DNA of 64,000 nt. Origin: Dehalobacterium formicoaceticum. Lineage in GTDB: Bacteria; Bacillota; Dehalobacteriia; Dehalobacteriales; Dehalobacteriaceae. Below the pieces are notes generated by a model. The model ran no database searches, was not told the origin of the DNA, and was given only the letters and a program-made list of their open reading frames with translations. Of the stretch, positions 32,330 through 41,595 are shown in pieces. The stretch's first letter is position 1; every line of letters begins with the position of its first letter. The DNA lies in NCBI RefSeq assembly GCF_002224645.1, contig NZ_CP022121.1:1054001-1118000 (forward strand). The letters are read 5' to 3'. A program made the translations under genes and the position numbers.

Positions 32330-34906
32330 ATGCAAAAATCAAAATTAGCGCTAGTTTTGACGATTGTAGCGATCTTATGCCTGGCCTTTGGCGGATCTGC
32401 TTTGGCAGCAGCCGGATATTTAGATGTTACAATCAGTGATAATAACGGTGCATATGATGACTTTGGTTATACCGGCTGTGAAGCCTCATATGTCCTGGAT
32501 GCCACCGGCATTGAATATTTTACGACTGATTGTTTAAATAATGACAAGGGCTTTGATATCATTCTGAACTTTGAATGTGATGAAGAATCTTATTCAGTAG
32601 AATTAGATGGGGATTATTCTCTGCCGGTTAAGGTATGGGCTCAAGATAAACCCTACGGCACTGCCGGTGCCCAAGGTGCTTGGTATACTGCTCAGCCTAC
32701 CGTTCCGGGAGGTCCTGGATTTGCAGCTCAAAGCACGATTACTCTGAAGGTTGAAGATCTGCAGATTGACAGCAAGTACAAATACATCACTGAGGTTGTT
32801 GTAGGGGATGAAAATCAAGATCTCAGAGTTATCAATCCCTGTGAAGCTGATGAATATTGCATTGAGATGATTATTGATGGAACTTGTGAAGATCTCGTGC
32901 TCAAGGATTATTTTGAGATTAAATCTGCTCCTGCCGCAGAAGGTCTTGTTCATTTGGCGATAACCCCAGCTGAAACACCTCCTGGCGATTGCGTACGTTG
33001 CTATACTGTAACAGGCAGACTTCTCAACTGTGCTGATGAACCAGTTCTCAACTGGCCGTTATCTGCTTATTTAAACGGTACAGACGTAACACCGCCAAGT
33101 GGCGCTGTAACTGATGCCAACGGAAACTTTAGCTTTAACATTAGAGGAGAATGGGAACCGGGTGAATACACAGTAAAGGTAGAAGCAGACGGTCCCTGCG
33201 AAGATGCCTCAGCAACCGTTCCTTTAACCATTGAAAAGACATTTGCCACCAACATGGAAATTTATGTTGAAAGCGCTGATGGGGTAGAAGATGAACTGCG
33301 GTACAACAAATGTAACGATGTTCAATTTTGTCTCTTCGATGATTGTGACTGGGATGCAACCGTAACTGCACCTACCACGATTTATTTCACAGCAACTCAG
33401 GAACGACCAGGGCAGGATCCCATCGTAGCCGGTCATTTCTATGAAGTATGTCCTGAAATAGTTGATTGTGGTTGCGAATATGATAGCATCATTAATGGTC
33501 AATGTACACATTGGGATCGGAATTATGGCCAAATCAACTCCATGGTCATTAATCCGGATGATTCTTGTGTAAATGTTCAAATGGTTCCTTTGGTTGAAGG
33601 TGAAATCACCATTACCGCTACTATTAAGATTGGTAATCGTGAAATTACCCAAAGTAAAACAGTGACTTCTTTTGCTCCAGGAGAAGTAATGATGGATCTC
33701 CACCCCTTGGCTACCGATGATCAAGGTAACGTTAGAGCTGGCTGGCCCATCGTTGCCGCTGTCGCTTTAGACAGAACTGCCGGTGCCAACTATAATGTCA
33801 GCTTCACCATCAACGGCAAACCTGTGCTCGTAGCCGATCAATTAGTAAATGGCTATACAGGTCCGGATTACATTCCTCCTATGAATTATGATGAGTTTGT
33901 TGCTGCTTTTGGTGTTGCTGCATCCGAATGCGAAGGTGACTATGAAGCGATCTTCCCTTATTGCACCGATAAATGGTACTTCATGCTTTATCCCTGCGAA
34001 GATTTAAGAGGTGATTTTGAGGTTGAAGTAACCGTTGACAGCGTTGGTACCGCATCGGCAGATTTCTTCACCAATAACAAAGGCGTAGATATTCCTTTGA
34101 ACTTTGTTACCCCTGTTGAATTAACAAGAGAATTGGCTCCTGATTCCTGGCAGACCTTCTCCACACCGAAGCTTTTAGCTGCCCGCTGTGAAGAAACTCC
34201 GCAATACGGAAAGGTTTATGAGTTGCTTTGGCCGTTAGCCGAAGAAATGCTTGATGGCGGACCTTTCATGTATGATGAACTTGAATTGTTTGTCTTGGGT
34301 TATGAAAATGGTGCATGGCGTGTAGTAATGCCTGATGAAGAAGTTCAGCCATTGGCCGGTTATTATGTCAGAACCCCTCAACGGGAAAAAGGCGATTGGA
34401 ATATGAGAAAAGTTCCTTTCCAAATTGAATATGTATTTGCCCGGGCAACTACGCCCACTTTGTCCATGCCTTACACAATGACTTATCCGCCGCTTCCTGC
34501 AGATGCAGCTAACTTGGCTCCTTTCTACTGGAACAGCGTTGGTGTAGGCGTAGATGATACCAAAGCATCAGATGATCCGATGACCATGCAGTCTGATACG
34601 GCAGCACAAGCTTTAGGTGCCTTGATCAAAAATAAAGATTCGATCATGGTTTGGAATCCTGGTGAAAAATTAGCCAACGTCAATGATCAATTTACCAGCC
34701 TTGCCTTAGGCGGCAATGCAACACCGAACACTTCTGTTGATCCTTGGGCTACGGTGTATAACGGCGACGTATACTGGGTCTTCAGCTCCGGTATCCTTGG
34801 GCCAAATATTAATACCACTAATGTTGGTTTGGATATGATTGAGTGGATCGGCGGCAACTATAAGCCCATTGCTCAACCTCCGTATTGGCCAGCACCTCTT
34901 AATTAG
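32330..34906 (+). CDS. Large exported Cys-rich surface protein of unknown family
   Basis: An 858-residue protein with a signal peptide ending at GGSALAAAGYLDV. No SLH, sortase, dockerin or enzyme motif seen. The first ~600 residues contain some 30 cysteines, often in acidic surroundings (FECDEESYSVELDG, VCPEIVDCGCEYD). Residues ~215-310 look like an Ig-like or carboxypeptidase-regulatory module (VTDANGNFSFNIRGEWEPGE). The last ~260 residues lack Cys and end in aromatic, Pro-rich sequence. AAGGAGG precedes the ATG and a strong terminator follows (34998), so it is probably a monocistronic, well-expressed gene; an S-layer or exosporium-like component is one possibility. Confidence 0.8.
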   Translation: MQKSKLALVLTIVAILCLAFGGSALAAAGYLDVTISDNNGAYDDFGYTGCEASYVLDATGIEYFTTDCLNNDKGFDIILNFECDEESYSVELDGDYSLPVKVWAQDKPYGTAGAQGAWYTAQPTVPGGPGFAAQSTITLKVEDLQIDSKYKYITEVVVGDENQDLRVINPCEADEYCIEMIIDGTCEDLVLKDYFEIKSAPAAEGLVHLAITPAETPPGDCVRCYTVTGRLLNCADEPVLNWPLSAYLNGTDVTPPSGAVTDANGNFSFNIRGEWEPGEYTVKVEADGPCEDASATVPLTIEKTFATNMEIYVESADGVEDELRYNKCNDVQFCLFDDCDWDATVTAPTTIYFTATQERPGQDPIVAGHFYEVCPEIVDCGCEYDSIINGQCTHWDRNYGQINSMVINPDDSCVNVQMVPLVEGEITITATIKIGNREITQSKTVTSFAPGEVMMDLHPLATDDQGNVRAGWPIVAAVALDRTAGANYNVSFTINGKPVLVADQLVNGYTGPDYIPPMNYDEFVAAFGVAASECEGDYEAIFPYCTDKWYFMLYPCEDLRGDFEVEVTVDSVGTASADFFTNNKGVDIPLNFVTPVELTRELAPDSWQTFSTPKLLAARCEETPQYGKVYELLWPLAEEMLDGGPFMYDELELFVLGYENGAWRVVMPDEEVQPLAGYYVRTPQREKGDWNMRKVPFQIEYVFARATTPTLSMPYTMTYPPLPADAANLAPFYWNSVGVGVDDTKASDDPMTMQSDTAAQALGALIKNKDSIMVWNPGEKLANVNDQFTSLALGGNATPNTSVDPWATVYNGDVYWVFSSGILGPNINTTNVGLDMIEWIGGNYKPIAQPPYWPAPLN

Positions 34907-35093: not shown

Positions 35094-36752
35094 ATGATGA
35101 ACTTGCAGCCTAAAAAAACGAGAAAAAAATATGCTTTAGTCATAACTTTAGTGATGATCCTGTGTTTATGCTTTGCCGGTACGGCTTTTGGCGTACCAGG
35201 ATATGTTGAATTTGTATCATCCAATCCAATGAATGGAGCAATCAATGTTGATCCTGGTTTATCTGCCATCACTGTGGATTGGGATGAGAACATTACATTA
35301 GTACCTGAAATGGAAAGACAATTTAATGATGATCTGACTCTTAAGGAAAAAGTATCAGGGGTGGATGTTCCATTCACGCTTACTGCCAGCGGGACCCAAA
35401 TGAGCATGGCACTTAATGCTTCTTTAAAGGAAGACACCCAATATCAATTGAATATTCCTGAAAACTTAGTAAGAGCAAACAACTATGGATTCGCTTATGA
35501 GAATATTAGCAGTAGAATGATTACCTTCACTACCGGTGAAGCCGATGCCGAAGATCCGGTTGTGACGATCGATCCTATCAGTGACTTAACCCTGAAGTTT
35601 GGTGCTGCGGAATCTGCTACACTGGCGGTCGTTACTGATCCTGAAGATGCTGCCGTGACCTTTGAATCTGCTAATGATGGCATTGCTACCGTTAATACCA
35701 GCGGCCTTGTGCAAGCTGTTGCCCCCGGTACAACTACGATCACCGTTAATGCCAGTGCAGATGATTACACAGATGCAGCTGCTACCGTTAATGTAACGGT
35801 TCAGAAAGGTGATTTGACTATTACTGGACTCCCCGCATCCCTTAATCTTTTAGTGGACGGATCTAGCCAACAGTTGAATCCCGCAGCCCCGGGTGCCGCT
35901 TTTAGTTATGCATCCACTAATGCCGGTGTAGCTACTGTTACAAATGGTTTAGTGGCTCCTGTTGCAGTGGGGAATGCTACCATTACCGTAACTGCGACAA
36001 GAGCGAATTATAATGATGCCACGGCTCAGGTTACCGTTTATGTAACAACGGAAGCCATGGAACAAGTAGCTCTCACAGTCAGCCCCTTGGATGTAACCCT
36101 GGAAGAGGATGCCACAAGCACGCTCTCTGTTAATGCTACGGAAGGTGCTTCTATCGCATATGAATCCGTAGATCCAACGGTTGCTACAGTAGCTGGCGGC
36201 GTAATCACTGCCGTAGCTCCAGGAAGCACCACGATTAAAGTTACAGCTTCCCTCACCGGTTATTTACCAAAAACAGTAACTGTGAATGTTACCGTTACTG
36301 AAGCCGAACCTGGTGAATTACAGCTAACAGTAACACCGGCTGAAGTAACCCTTTATCTGGGTGAAACCGGTCAAAGTTTTGATTTGACGGTTGCTGTTGT
36401 TCCGACTGATGCTGTTCTTACTTACGAGACTTCAAATGCAGGAGTTGTGACGGTGGCTAATGGCAAGCTTACTGCGGTAGCAGTTGGTGGAGCGACCATC
36501 ACCGTAACAGCCTCCAAGGAAGGCTATGATGATGTGCAAGAAACAGTGGCAGTTACTGTAGCTCCTATAATTTCCGGTGATGTGAATTTAGATGGTGAAG
36601 TGAACACTCTTGATATTCAGACTGCGATCAATATTGCCATCGGGCGAACTGTTCCTACGGCATTACAAATTGAAGCGGCAGATTTGAATAATGATGGCAA
36701 GGTAAATATTTTAGACGTAGTAAAAATCATCAATCTGGTGATGGAAGCTTAG
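35094..36752 (+). CDS. Exported multi-Ig protein with C-terminal type I dockerin
   Basis: A 552-residue protein: signal peptide 1-33; an SbsA-like Ig domain ~36-148 (SSNPMNGAINVDPGLSAITV); four BIG2 Ig-like repeats ~155-237, 239-318, 324-402 and 408-490 (each with a VATV...V.AVAPGTTTITV pattern); and a dockerin at 493-552 with two Ca2+ loops, DVNLDGEVNTLD and DLNNDGKVNILD. It has no catalytic domain. The dockerin should bind the cohesins of the adjacent scaffoldin at 36860. TAAGGAGGGAG precedes the ATG pair at 35094/35097. Confidence 0.93.
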   Translation: MMNLQPKKTRKKYALVITLVMILCLCFAGTAFGVPGYVEFVSSNPMNGAINVDPGLSAITVDWDENITLVPEMERQFNDDLTLKEKVSGVDVPFTLTASGTQMSMALNASLKEDTQYQLNIPENLVRANNYGFAYENISSRMITFTTGEADAEDPVVTIDPISDLTLKFGAAESATLAVVTDPEDAAVTFESANDGIATVNTSGLVQAVAPGTTTITVNASADDYTDAAATVNVTVQKGDLTITGLPASLNLLVDGSSQQLNPAAPGAAFSYASTNAGVATVTNGLVAPVAVGNATITVTATRANYNDATAQVTVYVTTEAMEQVALTVSPLDVTLEEDATSTLSVNATEGASIAYESVDPTVATVAGGVITAVAPGSTTIKVTASLTGYLPKTVTVNVTVTEAEPGELQLTVTPAEVTLYLGETGQSFDLTVAVVPTDAVLTYETSNAGVVTVANGKLTAVAVGGATITVTASKEGYDDVQETVAVTVAPIISGDVNLDGEVNTLDIQTAINIAIGRTVPTALQIEAADLNNDGKVNILDVVKIINLVMEA

Positions 36753-36783
36753 TATTAGTTTACCTTTATCAAACATGGTTAAA

Positions 36784-36814
36784 ACGCTCCCCTTGGACGA
36801 GCCGAGGGGAGTGT
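36784..36814 (+). terminator. Hairpin between dockerin protein and scaffoldin
   Basis: ACGCTCCCCT pairs with AGGGGAGTGT (one G-U), loop 11 bases. No T run, so it may be a partial terminator or an mRNA processing hairpin that sets expression of the scaffoldin. Confidence 0.5.
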
Positions 36815-36859
36815 GTATATTAGACAATTCATGATGAGCGATCAGGAGGGAGGAGCTAC

Positions 36860-39124
36860 ATGAAGAATTGGAAAAACAATCATAAGAGCTTAATGCGCCT
36901 GCTGACCTTCTCTCTGGTGTTATTGTTAAGCTTCGGGGCGATCTCGTTAAGCGCCTTAGGGGCAAGTGGAGAGAACGGATTGACCATAAGTGTCGGAAAC
37001 AAGACGGCCGATCCGGGTGCAACGATTTCTGTCCCTGTTGTCTTTACCAGTGATGGTGAGGCTGCTGGGATGCAGTTTGATTTAAAGTATGATACATCAT
37101 TACTGACACCCATTGAGGTTAAGAACAGTCAAGATAAGTTGGTGTTGGATTTTACGGCTGGTAACTTACCCGCTGGGTTTTCTGTAGCTGGAAGTAAGTT
37201 AGGGAATAATGATATCAGGGTAATCGTTTATCATTCGCTGGGTGAAAGCATTCCGGCGGGAAGCTTTACCGTTATTAACTTGAAATTTAAGGTTAACGCG
37301 GCTGCCGCTCCGGCTCAGGAAAGTAATTTAGATCTGACTGATGTTTTGATCTCCGATCCATCGGCGGAAACATTAACGCCGGATGCCATTAACGACGGCA
37401 TTTTCACTATTGCCGGGGATATGATAATCACCGGACTGCCTGCTGCCCTTAATCTTGTAGTTGGTGCTTCCGGCGAACAGTTGTCACCTGTGGCGGCTGG
37501 TGCAGCTTTCACTTACGAGTCCGATGATGATGATGTTGCGACAGTATCCGCAACCGGTTTGGTGACTCCGGTGGCAGCCGGTAACACAACGATTACTGTG
37601 ACTGCGAATAAAGAAAATCATATTGCAGTCACTTCTACCGTCCCCGTAACTGTCATCGACAGTCAGGCTCTGTCTATTCCTAACGTGACCGGGGATCCGG
37701 GTACGACGGTTGAAGTTCCTGTGATGCTGAACACCGTGGGACTTGTTGCCGGGATGCAATTTACCCTAAACTATGATCCTGAAATCCTTTCTTATCAGGG
37801 GATTAGTGATGGTGCGCTGACTTCCGGGTTTACAGTGGATGCAGAACCGGTTCAGGATGGGAAGGTTAATATCCTGATCGTTGATATACCGGTGGCTGCA
37901 ATCCCGGTAGGCAGCGGCTCCGTGGCAGTTCTGGAATTTAATGTCCTAAATTCAGCTCAGCCTGGGGCAACAAGCCCCTTGGCTCTCAGCGACATCATCT
38001 TCGCAGATGTAGAGGGGGAAGCATTGCCGGATAATGGTTCCACGAACGGATTATTTACCGTGACAGGAACAGCTGCTTCCGATAAGCTGGTTTTGACGGC
38101 TGGAACAGTTACCGGGAGAGCCGGATCAAATGTTTCTGTGCCTATTACCTTACTCAGCGAAGGAAATGTGGCCGGCATTCAGTTTGCCTTGTCTTATGAT
38201 CCCGCATTGCTTAGCTTCAAGAGTATCGATAAGGGAGCTTTAACTGCGGGCTTTGAAGTCGAGGCCGAACCTGCAGCCGGCGCTGTGAATGTCCTACTGG
38301 TGAAAATACCGGTAACTGCTATTGCGGCTGGGGAAGGCACCGTGGCCAAGATCAACTTTACCGTTGTTTCCGGAGCACGAACCGGAAATTCCTGTAACCT
38401 TAATTTAAACGATGTTGTTTTCTCTGACGATGAAGGAGAACCCTTAATTGCAGACAAATTGAATAATGGTAAGTTCACAGTCGCTTCCAGCGGTGGCGGC
38501 GGCGGCGGTGGAGGCGGCGGCAGCTACAAGGATAAGGATGATGATAAAGAAGAAACTCCATCCAAGCCGGATTGCTCCTTCACTGATCTGACCGCAAACC
38601 ACTGGGCTTACAAGGATATCATTGAACTCTGTGAAGCAGGGATCATCAATGGTTATCCCGATGGCACCTTCGGCCCGGAAAGAAGTATTACCCGTGCTGA
38701 GTTTGCCAAGATTATTGTAGGCGTTAAAGGAACAACTTTGGTTAATCCTGCTCAGCCCACATATCAGGATGCAGCCAGAAGCAATTGGTACTACCAATAT
38801 GTGGAAACTGCAACTCAGGCAGGGCTGGTCATGGGCGACGGCAAAGGTAAGTTCCGTCCTAATGATCAAATTTCCCGTCAGGAAATCGCTATTATCTTAG
38901 TGCGAGCGATGGGTATGCAAAATGAAGCCGCAGCCAAAGCACAAGAAATGACTTCCTTTAGTGATGATGCTCAAATTGCAGCATGGGCTAAAGGTCATGT
39001 GGTGATTGCTGTTGAGCAAGGCTTGATCAATGGCTATCCCGGAAATCCGCCTACTTTCAAGGCGAAGAATACGGCAACCAGAGCAGAAGCTGCTACGATG
39101 CTGAACCGGTATCGTAACCAGTAA
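36860..39124 (+). CDS. Scaffoldin: three cohesin domains, BIG2 and three SLH domains
   Basis: A 754-residue surface scaffold. Signal peptide 1-35. Cohesin 1 ~41-186 (VGNKTADPGATISVPVVF, GMQFDLKYD); BIG2 ~188-266; cohesin 2 ~268-403 (VTGDPGTTVEVPVML, GMQFTLNYDPEIL); cohesin 3 ~408-542 (VTGRAGSNVSVPITL, GIQFALSYDPALL). A poly-Gly and charged linker (~544-571) leads to three SLH repeats ~573-752 (HWAYKDIIELCEAGIINGYP, ITRAEFAKI). SLH binds pyruvylated wall polymer, cohesins bind dockerins. It stands between two dockerin genes. GGAGGGAGG precedes ATG. Cohesins 2 and 3 are closest to each other. Confidence 0.95.
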   Translation: MKNWKNNHKSLMRLLTFSLVLLLSFGAISLSALGASGENGLTISVGNKTADPGATISVPVVFTSDGEAAGMQFDLKYDTSLLTPIEVKNSQDKLVLDFTAGNLPAGFSVAGSKLGNNDIRVIVYHSLGESIPAGSFTVINLKFKVNAAAAPAQESNLDLTDVLISDPSAETLTPDAINDGIFTIAGDMIITGLPAALNLVVGASGEQLSPVAAGAAFTYESDDDDVATVSATGLVTPVAAGNTTITVTANKENHIAVTSTVPVTVIDSQALSIPNVTGDPGTTVEVPVMLNTVGLVAGMQFTLNYDPEILSYQGISDGALTSGFTVDAEPVQDGKVNILIVDIPVAAIPVGSGSVAVLEFNVLNSAQPGATSPLALSDIIFADVEGEALPDNGSTNGLFTVTGTAASDKLVLTAGTVTGRAGSNVSVPITLLSEGNVAGIQFALSYDPALLSFKSIDKGALTAGFEVEAEPAAGAVNVLLVKIPVTAIAAGEGTVAKINFTVVSGARTGNSCNLNLNDVVFSDDEGEPLIADKLNNGKFTVASSGGGGGGGGGGSYKDKDDDKEETPSKPDCSFTDLTANHWAYKDIIELCEAGIINGYPDGTFGPERSITRAEFAKIIVGVKGTTLVNPAQPTYQDAARSNWYYQYVETATQAGLVMGDGKGKFRPNDQISRQEIAIILVRAMGMQNEAAAKAQEMTSFSDDAQIAAWAKGHVVIAVEQGLINGYPGNPPTFKAKNTATRAEAATMLNRYRNQ

Positions 39125-39157
39125 TATCTCTTAAGCAGATGGGGAATACATGAACCA

Positions 39158-39199
39158 AAAGACACTCTTCCTGGATTCAATCGGGGGAGTGTCTTTATT
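39158..39199 (+). terminator. Terminator after scaffoldin
   Basis: AAAGACACTC pairs with GAGTGTCTTT around a 19-base loop containing a further CC/GG pairing, followed by ATTCC. T tract is weak. Confidence 0.65.
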
Positions 39200-39276
39200 C
39201 CATAGAAAGTCACCATGAAGCGCATTCCCTTTCCTTCAGTCAGAAAATACATATTTTTGAAAGGTGGCCAATTTAT

Positions 39277-39852
39277 ATGTACCGTAAAATCCTGGTGCTG
39301 GTTCTGCTGCTCCTAACCTTTGTTTTTCCGTTAACCGCGCTGGCAGATGATTTTCCGGCGATACCTTCCATCTATAAGGGGACGGTCAAGGATCAAAATG
39401 GAAACCCTGTTGCCTCTGGAACTGTGAAAGCTTATACCAATGATATCCTGCGCGGTAGCGTAGGGTTTACCGGAGGTAGATATGAAGATCTTATAGTTTC
39501 CGGAGATATAAATTCCATGTTAAAAATCGTAAAATTTACGGTGACGGTGCGGAATGTGGAATTAGATGCCGTGCCCGCTTCCCCGGTCAAATGGCGGGAA
39601 GGAAAAATTAGCGGTTTGGATATGGATGACGTGAATCTTACCGTGGACGTAAGCTCTCTCCCTCCTTTATTACCGGGAGACGTTAATCAGGATGGAGTAG
39701 TTAACATTTTTGATGTCCAATTGACGATCAATTTTGTCATGGAGAAATCTGTACCTAGCGCGGTGCAGCGTGAATCTAGTGATATGGATGGAAATGGATC
39801 CTTGAATATATTTGATGTGGTGCGCATCATTAACATTATCATGGAGCGCTGA
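39277..39852 (+). CDS. Small exported protein with type I dockerin
   Basis: A 191-residue protein: signal peptide 1-23; a ~105-residue domain (residues ~26-130) beginning IPSIYKGTVKDQNGNPVASG and ending VKWREGKISGLDMDDVNLTVD, likely a carboxypeptidase-regulatory-like beta-sandwich; and a dockerin at ~133-190 with DVNQDGVVNIFD and DMDGNGSLNIFD loops. The same N-terminal domain occurs in the SLH protein at 40075. AAAGGTGG precedes the ATG. Probably loaded on the scaffoldin encoded just upstream. Confidence 0.92.
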   Translation: MYRKILVLVLLLLTFVFPLTALADDFPAIPSIYKGTVKDQNGNPVASGTVKAYTNDILRGSVGFTGGRYEDLIVSGDINSMLKIVKFTVTVRNVELDAVPASPVKWREGKISGLDMDDVNLTVDVSSLPPLLPGDVNQDGVVNIFDVQLTINFVMEKSVPSAVQRESSDMDGNGSLNIFDVVRIINIIMER

Positions 39853-40074
39853 GATCTTTCATGATCTAAGCCTTGAGGAAGTATCATCTCCTCCGATAGG
39901 AGGAAAAAAATCCATCATTGGATGGAGAATATAATAGAATGAACTTTGAAGATCATATTTATCTCCATCTGAATGAGGATGAATTTAATGGTGCTGTAAA
40001 GTACAATTAGTGATAAGAAGGTAGCATCTTCATCTCGAAGGTATTGCCACAAACTTGAAAGGTGGTAAGATTCA

Positions 40075-41595
40075 ATGAAGCGAAAAACCCTGATTGTTTT
40101 AACTTTAATACTTGCTTTAATCTTTCCCATGACGGCTCTGGCAGAGGACATGCCTCCAATCCCGTCTATTTACAAAGGGACCGTGGTTGACCAAGATGGT
40201 AAAGCCGTCTCCGCCGGTACAATTAATGCTTATACCAAGGATACTTTGAGAGGCAGTATTGATTTAAAAGATGGTAAGTTCAGTAAATTCTTAGTGACTG
40301 GAGATGTTGATACGATCAATATTCCCGTTGCTTTTACCATTGAAATTAATGGCGTAGAAGCAGATGCTACAGCTGACCCTGAGGTAAAATGGCAGGAAGG
40401 TAAAATTAGCGGCCTGGATATTCCGGAGATCAAGCTGACCGTTGATACTTCGAAGCTTCCCGATGTGTCGGGTCAAGTATCCGTTGAGGCTGCTAATGAT
40501 AATTTTACCGTGAAGGTTGGGAATACAAGACAGATCCGCGTTACAACCACACCCGACAATGCTGCCCTTAGTTATCAGAGCGATAAAACCGGTGTTGCCA
40601 CTGTGAATTCCAGCGGTGTTGTCACCGCTAAAGGAGAAGGTACGGCTGTAATAACTGTCACTGCTTCCAGTTCGGGTATGCTTGACGGAAAAGCGACGAT
40701 ACGGGTACGCGTCAGTGAAAATCCCATTGAGATCACCGTAACCCCAGAATCCGTTAAATTGGACGCGGGCAAGACCCAGCAATTAAGCGTAACCACAGAT
40801 CCTACCGGTACAACGAAATCCTATAAATCCAGCGATACAAAGGTAGCAACGGTTAATTCTTCCGGCATCATTACCGCAGTTGCCCAAGGCACAGCTACCA
40901 TCACTATTACGGCGGCAAAAGATAATTATGAAGACGGTGAAGATACTGTAAAAGTAACGGTGACCTCCGCCGGCAGCGGCAGCACCGGTAATAATCCCGG
41001 AACGAACCCTGGCACCACACCGGGAACCAATCCTCCCGGCCCTACCTCTTTCTCTGATGTTCCGCAAAATCATTGGGCTTACGGAAACATTGCTCTCTTA
41101 GCCAAGAGTGGTATTGTGGGCGGTTATGTCGATGGCACTTTCCAACCGGCGAAGAATGTTACCCGGGCGGAATTCACCAAGATGCTGGCCATTGCTGTCG
41201 GCTTGGCCGAAGAAAAACCTGCCCAGCCTAAATTCAGTGATGTCCCCGGCACCCTATGGAGTTATGGCTTTATTGAAGCCGCAGCTAAGGCAGGCTTGGT
41301 GACTGGTGATGCCGCAGGCACCTTCCGGCCGAATGATAATATCACCCGTCAGGAAATGGCTGCCATTTTGGTACGGGCGATGGGCAAAATAGATGCCGGT
41401 ACTACCAATGCCAGCTTGGCTACTGCTTTCACAGATGACAAATCTATTGCTCCTTGGGCCAGAGGCTTTGTCGTCAGTGCAGTTCAGGACGGTTTAGTGG
41501 GCGGCTACAGTGTGGATAATACCTTCCGTCCGGCACAAAATGCTACCAGGGCAGAATCATGTGCCATGATCGCCCGCTTATTGGAAAAAATTTAA
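40075..41595 (+). CDS. SLH-anchored surface protein with BIG2 domains
   Basis: A 506-residue protein: signal peptide 1-23; the same ~105-residue domain as the preceding dockerin protein (IPSIYKGTVVDQDGKAVSAG ... VKWQEGKISGLDIPEIKLTV); two BIG2 repeats ~133-213 and ~217-297; a Gly/Pro/Thr linker (~300-323); and three SLH repeats ~325-505 (HWAYGNIALLAKSGIVGGYV, VTRAEFTKM). It is attached to the wall directly instead of through cohesin-dockerin pairing. GAAAGGTGG precedes the ATG. A terminator at 41614 closes the island. Confidence 0.93.
   Translation: MKRKTLIVLTLILALIFPMTALAEDMPPIPSIYKGTVVDQDGKAVSAGTINAYTKDTLRGSIDLKDGKFSKFLVTGDVDTINIPVAFTIEINGVEADATADPEVKWQEGKISGLDIPEIKLTVDTSKLPDVSGQVSVEAANDNFTVKVGNTRQIRVTTTPDNAALSYQSDKTGVATVNSSGVVTAKGEGTAVITVTASSSGMLDGKATIRVRVSENPIEITVTPESVKLDAGKTQQLSVTTDPTGTTKSYKSSDTKVATVNSSGIITAVAQGTATITITAAKDNYEDGEDTVKVTVTSAGSGSTGNNPGTNPGTTPGTNPPGPTSFSDVPQNHWAYGNIALLAKSGIVGGYVDGTFQPAKNVTRAEFTKMLAIAVGLAEEKPAQPKFSDVPGTLWSYGFIEAAAKAGLVTGDAAGTFRPNDNITRQEMAAILVRAMGKIDAGTTNASLATAFTDDKSIAPWARGFVVSAVQDGLVGGYSVDNTFRPAQNATRAESCAMIARLLEKI

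What the first reader, a model, noticed from the sequence alone, without database searches (positions are those of the whole stretch)
35094..41595. Compact cohesin-dockerin-SLH surface complex without any glycoside hydrolase
One scaffoldin with three cohesins and three SLH domains is flanked by two dockerin proteins, and a further SLH protein follows. In cellulosomes the dockerin proteins are mainly enzymes; here they carry only Ig-like or carboxypeptidase-regulatory-like modules. The set may be a self-assembling, non-cellulolytic wall lattice for adhesion or a surface coat. Domain calls are read from sequence; the assembly is inferred from known cohesin-dockerin pairing.
Basis: partly seen in the sequence, partly recalled or inferred. 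Interest (0 to 1): 0.85.

Follow-up and report, generated by a model that had tools for sequence, protein, structure and literature searches.

The report
Non-cellulolytic cohesin-dockerin surface anchoring cluster
This dichloromethane-eating bacterium appears to use the clip-together parts of a cellulosome, with no cellulose enzymes, to hang a protease and a few structural proteins on its surface layer: a variant of a known design, not a new kind of machine.

Summary
ORF 36860-39124 carries 3 cohesins, one Big_2 and 3 SLH domains. It is flanked by two single-dockerin proteins, and a fourth ORF carries SLH domains.

The genome length (3,766,545 bp) equals that published for Dehalobacterium formicoaceticum DMC. 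Genome-wide there are only 3 cohesins, all here, and 4 intact dockerins plus one truncated remnant. None is on a glycoside hydrolase. One is on a subtilase (S8) and one on an 886-aa protein of unknown function.

The best clue is module swapping. The head of dockerin ORF 39277 recurs (51% identity) in SLH-bearing ORF 40075. The 886-aa dockerin protein shares a module (52%) with an N-terminally SLH-anchored protein. So a dockerin seems to substitute for SLH, with ORF 36860 as adaptor.

The proposed self-assembling lattice is not supported: each partner has one dockerin and the scaffold has none, so cohesin-dockerin pairing alone gives a capped complex.

The scaffold was already reported as an abundant S-layer protein with cohesins; its dockerin partners were not mentioned in that paper. 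Class relatives have similar non-glycosidase systems (phosphatase, peptidases). Verdict: a variant of the known SLH-anchoring-scaffoldin/noncellulosomal cohesin-dockerin kind. Binding is inferred, not shown.

The parts
35094..36752 (+). Secreted 552-aa protein: signal peptide, N-terminal Ig-like region, four Big_2 domains, C-terminal dockerin
36576..36737 (+). Dockerin of ORF 35094; two canonical calcium loops DVNLDGEVNTLD and DLNNDGKVNILD
36860..39124 (+). SLH-anchored adaptor scaffoldin, 754 aa: Coh1 - Big_2 - Coh2 - Coh3 - Gly-rich/charged linker - three SLH; almost certainly WP_089609413.1 of PMC10327494
36983..37405 (+). Cohesin 1 (most divergent, 32-35% to the other two)
37502..37621 (+). 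Big_2 spacer between cohesins 1 and 2
37670..38050 (+). Cohesin 2
38093..38482 (+). Cohesin 3
38576..39094 (+). Three SLH repeats (38576-38707, 38768-38890, 38954-39094), aligning to the solved Sap SLH domain
39277..39852 (+). Secreted 191-aa protein: head module plus C-terminal dockerin
39673..39840 (+). Dockerin of ORF 39277; loops DVNQDGVVNIFD and DMDGNGSLNIFD
40075..41595 (+). 506-aa protein: same head as ORF 39277 (51% identity), two Big_2, three SLH; directly anchored counterpart
41047..41556 (+). Three SLH repeats of ORF 40075

Best explanation
The cluster encodes a minimal surface-anchoring (display) system. ORF 36860 is a secreted adaptor. Its C-terminal SLH trimer binds the cell-wall polymer and its three cohesins bind calcium-dependent dockerins. 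Up to three dockerin-tagged secreted proteins per adaptor are held in the S-layer: the Big_2 protein (ORF 35094), the small head protein (ORF 39277), a subtilase, and an 886-aa S-layer-like protein. Dockerin is thus an indirect, exchangeable alternative to carrying one's own SLH domains. The organism builds modules both ways, for example the head on ORF 39277 (dockerin) and on ORF 40075 (SLH). It is not a cellulosome and not a cohesin-dockerin polymer. Shown by sequence: domains, calcium loops, complete genome inventory, module swaps, co-localisation. Shown by others: abundance of the cohesin-SLH protein during growth on dichloromethane. Inferred: that these cohesins bind these dockerins, the stoichiometry, and the role of the displayed proteins (peptide scavenging or processing, surface structure).
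For: Domains. Complete single-contig genome with only 3 cohesins and 4 intact dockerins, also with profiles made from its own domains. All eight dockerin repeats have the D-x-N/D-x-D/N-G-x-x-N/D-x-x-D loop and nearly one code (I/T-F/L at 10-11, I/V-N at 17-18), as expected for one shared partner type. The nearest solved relatives of the cohesins and of the dockerins are the two chains of the same crystal complexes (5NRM/5NRK; also 6KGC, 4UYP, 1OHZ, 2CCL). Module swaps: ORF 39277/ORF 40075, and 886-aa dockerin protein / N-terminal SLH protein L138:2405-4993. A pyruvyl-transferase homologue, the enzyme type that makes the SLH ligand in other bacteria, is present. Gene neighbourhood: both flanks. 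In the class, every genome found with a cohesin also has dockerins, often in the next gene. The only cohesin-SLH protein of D. [quoted passage not shown]
Against: No binding shown. Structure predictions were of too low confidence to use (pLDDT 38 and 34), and complexes cannot be modelled with the tool. Proteomic detection of the dockerin proteins is not known to me (supplements could not be read). Cohesin 1 differs from cohesins 2 and 3 (32-35% identity) and could have other partners. Two of the four dockerin genes are far from the cluster. The subtilase has only a distant SLH-bearing S8 relative (34% over 164 aa; amidase-S8-SLH, no evident signal peptide), so the swap is firm for only two of four.
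Confidence: 0.75

Rival explanations
1. Self-assembling two-dimensional coat or adhesion lattice made of scaffoldin and dockerin proteins.
For: The scaffold is abundant and SLH-anchored; Big_2 domains are common in adhesins; the 886-aa partner shares a module with an SLH protein.
Against: One dockerin per partner and no dockerin on the scaffold, so cohesin-dockerin pairing cannot propagate. No adhesin-specific domain was found. One partner is a protease.
Confidence: 0.08
2. Peptide-scavenging complex: the true cargo is the subtilase, and the Big_2 and head proteins are spacers or substrate binders; a minimal version of peptidase-rich cohesin-dockerin systems of the class.
For: Subtilase with dockerin in this genome. 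In relative G035, 21 of 66 dockerin proteins are S15 X-Pro peptidases, with S8, M28, M64 and M6 examples. M64-dockerin in G024. The class is inferred to live on amino acids, and D. formicoaceticum grows on serine (PMC10327494).
Against: Only one of four partners here is a peptidase and its gene is about 1.4 Mb away. In G003, G016 and G020 the clustered enzyme is a phosphoesterase, so peptidase cargo is not the common denominator.
Confidence: 0.2
3. Decaying remnant of a cellulosome whose enzymes were lost.
For: One dockerin is a truncated remnant; domains are of the cellulosomal type I class by best structural matches.
Against: No CBM in the analysed proteins and no GH9 in the genome; all other domains intact; scaffold abundantly expressed; class relatives also have non-glycosidase dockerins, so there is no sign of a cellulolytic ancestor.
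Confidence: 0.04
4. Cohesins and dockerins here do not pair with each other; the cohesins bind something else, or the dockerins bind scaffoldins of other species.
For: Published work notes cohesin and dockerin modules outside cellulosomes, some without partners (Peer et al. 2009, known to me, text not held).
Against: Both occur together in all class genomes examined that have cohesins, adjacent genes, uniform dockerin code.
Confidence: 0.08

Closest known systems
SLH-anchoring scaffoldins of Acetivibrio/Clostridium thermocellum type (cohesin + SLH; PMC11557425)
   Same: Secreted protein with one or more cohesins and an SLH anchor that holds dockerin proteins at the surface
   Different: No primary scaffoldin, no CBM, no dockerin-borne glycoside hydrolase; only four intact dockerin proteins
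C. thermocellum S8 protease with double dockerin (dDoc_0689), which prefers the cell-bound scaffoldin ScaD (Chen et al. 2024, as described in PMC12484212; 8X39/8X3A 'serine protease' matched)
   Same: Subtilase anchored to the cell surface by a dockerin
   Different: Here a single dockerin, and in an organism without a cellulosome
Noncellulosomal cohesin/dockerin modules (Peer et al. 2009, FEMS Microbiol Lett; not held)
   Same: Few cohesins and dockerins in a non-cellulolytic bacterium
   Different: Here the complete set is known, clustered, SLH-linked and with SLH-swapped paralogues
Mucinolysome of Limousia (PMC12997984) and C. perfringens Coh-Doc glycosidase complexes
   Same: Cellulosome-like logic for something other than cellulose; dockerin peptidases included
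   Different: Those carry glycoside hydrolases; this one carries none
D. formicoaceticum S-layer protein WP_089609413.1 (PMC10327494)
   Same: Almost certainly this scaffold: SLH, several cohesins, one pfam02368; abundant in the proteome
   Different: That paper does not mention dockerins and labels the cohesins type II (cd08547); here the solved best matches are mostly type I cellulosomal cohesins

Membership tests
Cohesin-dockerin complex (general) | Cohesin modules on a scaffold and dockerins on secreted proteins of the same genome | tested here: met
Cohesin-dockerin complex (general) | Dockerins with two intact calcium-binding loops | tested here: met
   All four intact dockerins; the fifth keeps only the first loop
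Cohesin-dockerin complex (general) | Physical binding of these pairs | not testable with these tools
   Only single chains can be predicted, and these were of low confidence
Cellulosome | Dockerin-bearing glycoside hydrolases | tested here: not met
   None of the dockerin ORFs has a GH domain; GH9 absent from the genome
Cellulosome | Carbohydrate-binding module on the scaffoldin (typical of primary scaffoldins) | tested here: not met
   Pfam finds only Cohesin, Big_2/Big-like and SLH
SLH-anchoring scaffoldin | At least one cohesin with SLH domains in one secreted protein | tested here: met
   definition as in PMC11557425
SLH-anchoring scaffoldin | SLH domains bind a pyruvylated wall polymer | tested here: inconclusive
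   Pyruvyl-transferase homologue present; binding not tested
Type I versus type II cohesin/dockerin | Sequence closer to type I or type II | tested here: inconclusive
   Profiles score type I complexes best (5NRM, 2VN5, 6KGC, 1OHZ) and the ScaB adaptor cohesins (1QZN, 3L8Q, which I take to be type II) lower; the published label is type II; no tree was made
Polymerising surface lattice | Components with at least two complementary binding modules so that assembly can propagate | tested here: not met
   Single dockerin per partner, none on the scaffold; other contacts not excluded

The most novel reading that the evidence does not exclude
Dehalobacteriia use cohesin-dockerin pairing as a general non-glycosidase surface-display system (peptidases, a phosphoesterase, rubrerythrin, structural proteins), in which dockerin and SLH are interchangeable anchors. 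D. formicoaceticum keeps a minimal one-scaffold version, and the MAG G035 a large peptidase-rich one in which many proteins carry both a cohesin and a dockerin.
Probability: 0.35. Interest if true: 0.65.

Novelty: new variant of a known kind. Interest (0 to 1): 0.45.

Why it matters
It is a complete, very small cohesin-dockerin inventory (one scaffold, four intact partners, no carbohydrate enzymes) in a pure-culture organism of bioremediation interest. That makes it a clean case for asking what cohesin-dockerin pairing is for outside cellulosomes. The paired paralogues, same module with dockerin or with SLH, give a natural comparison for why a cell would anchor a protein indirectly. The relatives suggest peptidases and phosphoesterases as cargo across the class.

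Tried and rejected
AlphaFold runs of the scaffold (754 aa, pLDDT 34) and of ORF 39277 (pLDDT 38) were too poor to use, so no fold search was made. A protein scan of genome contigs with the scaffold gave only one weak Chitinophagaceae hit. A weak extra cohesin-profile hit at G000:C1:3726602 (E 0.12) lies in a 435-aa ORF that, with the ORF after it, resembles SecD/SecF by reading, and was discarded. Rfam found only the two tRNAs. Promoter- and terminator-like sites in the cluster are no more frequent than in shuffles, so operon structure is left open. GC content gives no sign of foreign origin (0.466 against 0.456 for the window). The S8-amidase-SLH protein (L141:771-2273) was considered as a third swap and judged too distant and without an evident signal peptide. 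An ordinary cellulosome was rejected on the dockerin inventory; a lattice on valency.
Full report
WHAT IS THERE. The four ORFs and their domains are confirmed at the stated coordinates. The middle gene (36860-39124, 754 aa) has a signal peptide, three cohesins (36983-37405, 37670-38050, 38093-38482), one Big_2 and three SLH repeats. ORF 35094 has four Big_2 domains and a C-terminal dockerin. ORF 39277 has a small head and a C-terminal dockerin. ORF 40075 has the same head (51% identity over 129 aa), two Big_2 and three SLH, but no dockerin. The carboxypeptidase-regulatory-like call for the head is weak (E 0.15, below cut-off). Signal peptides are read by eye from the translations.

WHOSE GENOME. 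The window is bases 1,054,001-1,118,000 of a single 3,766,545-base contig. That is exactly the published size of Dehalobacterium formicoaceticum DMC (PMC10344839). The family neighbour G003 (6,441,270 bases) fits 'Ca. Formimonas warabiya' DCMF, 6.44 Mb (PMC8163858).

COMPLETE INVENTORY. Pfam cohesin finds three matches in the genome, all in ORF 36860. A profile of these three finds only one further, non-credible hit. Pfam dockerin finds five and a profile from these finds the same five: ORF 35094; ORF 39277; an S8 subtilase with an Ig-like domain and C-terminal dockerin (L011:7008-8849); an 886-aa secreted protein with an N-terminal dockerin and no other known domain (L009:3887-6547 minus); and a 71-aa remnant with only the first half of a dockerin (L010:8633-8848). 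None is a glycoside hydrolase, and GH9 is absent from the genome. But an enzyme, the subtilase, does carry a dockerin.

DOCKERIN CODE. All eight repeats of the four intact dockerins keep the canonical calcium loop. They share nearly the same residues at the classical contact positions (I/T-F/L at 10-11, I/V-N at 17-18), in both repeats; which positions make contact is from my knowledge of solved type I complexes. That fits one common partner class and either-way binding; it is inference. The best solved matches of the cohesins and of the dockerins are the two chains of the same crystal complexes (5NRM/5NRK, 6KGC, 4UYP, 1OHZ, 2CCL).

THE KEY CLUE: ANCHOR SWAPPING. Two of the four dockerin proteins have a counterpart in the same genome that carries SLH instead. 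The head of ORF 39277 recurs on ORF 40075. Residues 541-885 of the 886-aa dockerin protein are 52% identical to an 863-aa protein with N-terminal SLH domains (G000:C1:960485-961486; L138:2405-4993). The Big_2 repeats of ORF 35094 also match those of ORF 40075 and the scaffold (37-58%), but Big_2 is too common to weigh much. An S8-amidase-SLH protein exists (L141:771-2273) but is a distant relative of the subtilase (34% over 164 aa). The simplest reading is that dockerin replaces SLH as the anchor, and that ORF 36860, the only cohesin protein and itself SLH-anchored, is the adaptor. A pyruvyl-transferase homologue, the enzyme type that modifies the wall polymer bound by SLH domains in other bacteria, is present.

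WHY NOT A LATTICE. Each partner has one dockerin and the scaffold has none, so cohesin-dockerin contacts give at most one scaffold with three capped partners. A coat could still form through SLH proteins in general (the genome has 34 SLH repeats), but this pairing would not drive it.

RELATIVES. In Formimonas (L061) and in two class-level MAGs (G016 L065; G020 L076) a similar cluster holds a purple-acid-phosphatase-like phosphoesterase with a dockerin, a second dockerin protein, a giant cohesin protein and SLH proteins. G024 has an M64 peptidase with a dockerin near an SLH and a cohesin gene; G011 has an LRR-dockerin protein next to a cohesin-SLH protein. G035 has about 75 dockerin matches. 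Of 66 dockerin ORFs scanned, 21 are S15 X-Pro peptidases; 32 of the 66 carry a cohesin as well; there are also S8, M28, M64 and M6 members and a rubrerythrin, and no GH family appears among the families listed (the lists show only the first 25 families of each half, so single GHs could be hidden, and G035 is an 85% complete MAG). Of the class genomes examined, all with cohesins also have dockerins; the two family members without cohesins have none. Two more distant genomes (G043, G054) have one weak cohesin and no dockerin, so co-occurrence is not universal.

EXPRESSION AND LITERATURE. [quoted passage not shown] formicoaceticum grown on dichloromethane. With one cohesin protein in the genome, this must be ORF 36860. 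The paper does not mention dockerins, and a search for papers naming the class and dockerin found none in the library. Close precedents are SLH-anchoring scaffoldins (PMC11557425) and the C. thermocellum S8 protease whose dockerin prefers the cell-bound scaffoldin ScaD (PMC12484212).

LIMITS. No interaction was measured or modelled: structure predictions failed (pLDDT 34-38). The function of the head, of the 886-aa protein and of the Big_2 protein is unknown; their display at the surface is the claim, not what they do there.

Noticed in passing
G035 (class-level relative), e.g. L078:2036-5263, L079:8111-11365, L063:3583-8124: A MAG with about 75 dockerins and 35 cohesins in which many S15 X-Pro peptidases (21 of 66 dockerin ORFs scanned) carry both a cohesin and a C-terminal dockerin, which would allow head-to-tail polymers; also a rubrerythrin with a dockerin. 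It may deserve its own study.
   Followed up: partly
L061:11546-12979, L065:18642-19940, L076:2362-3786: Purple-acid-phosphatase-like phosphoesterase with C-terminal dockerin in a conserved gene order with a giant cohesin protein and SLH proteins, in Formimonas and two MAGs.
   Followed up: partly
L010:8633-8848 (G000:C1:2448632-2448847): Truncated dockerin remnant (first repeat only) between an aldo/keto reductase-like gene and FAD/molybdopterin oxidoreductase-like genes (named by reading).
   Followed up: yes
L011:1429-4943 (G000:C1:2495428-2498942): Large CRISPR-like array (repeat about 30 bases, GCGGAACCTCCACATTGGATGTATTGAAAT, about 50 copies) about 2 kb upstream of the dockerin subtilase gene.
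   Followed up: partly
window 32330-34906: Large secreted 858-aa protein just upstream, Cys-rich N-terminal region, with no dockerin, cohesin or SLH; anchoring unknown.
   Followed up: no
window 36786-36815 and 39162-39195: GC-rich inverted repeats, each followed by a short T-containing stretch, after the first dockerin gene and after the scaffold gene; possible terminators between genes of the cluster (seen by reading; the scan finds no excess over shuffles).
   Followed up: partly
L141:771-2273: Protein with subtilase, N-acetylmuramoyl-L-alanine amidase and SLH domains and no evident signal peptide.
   Followed up: partly
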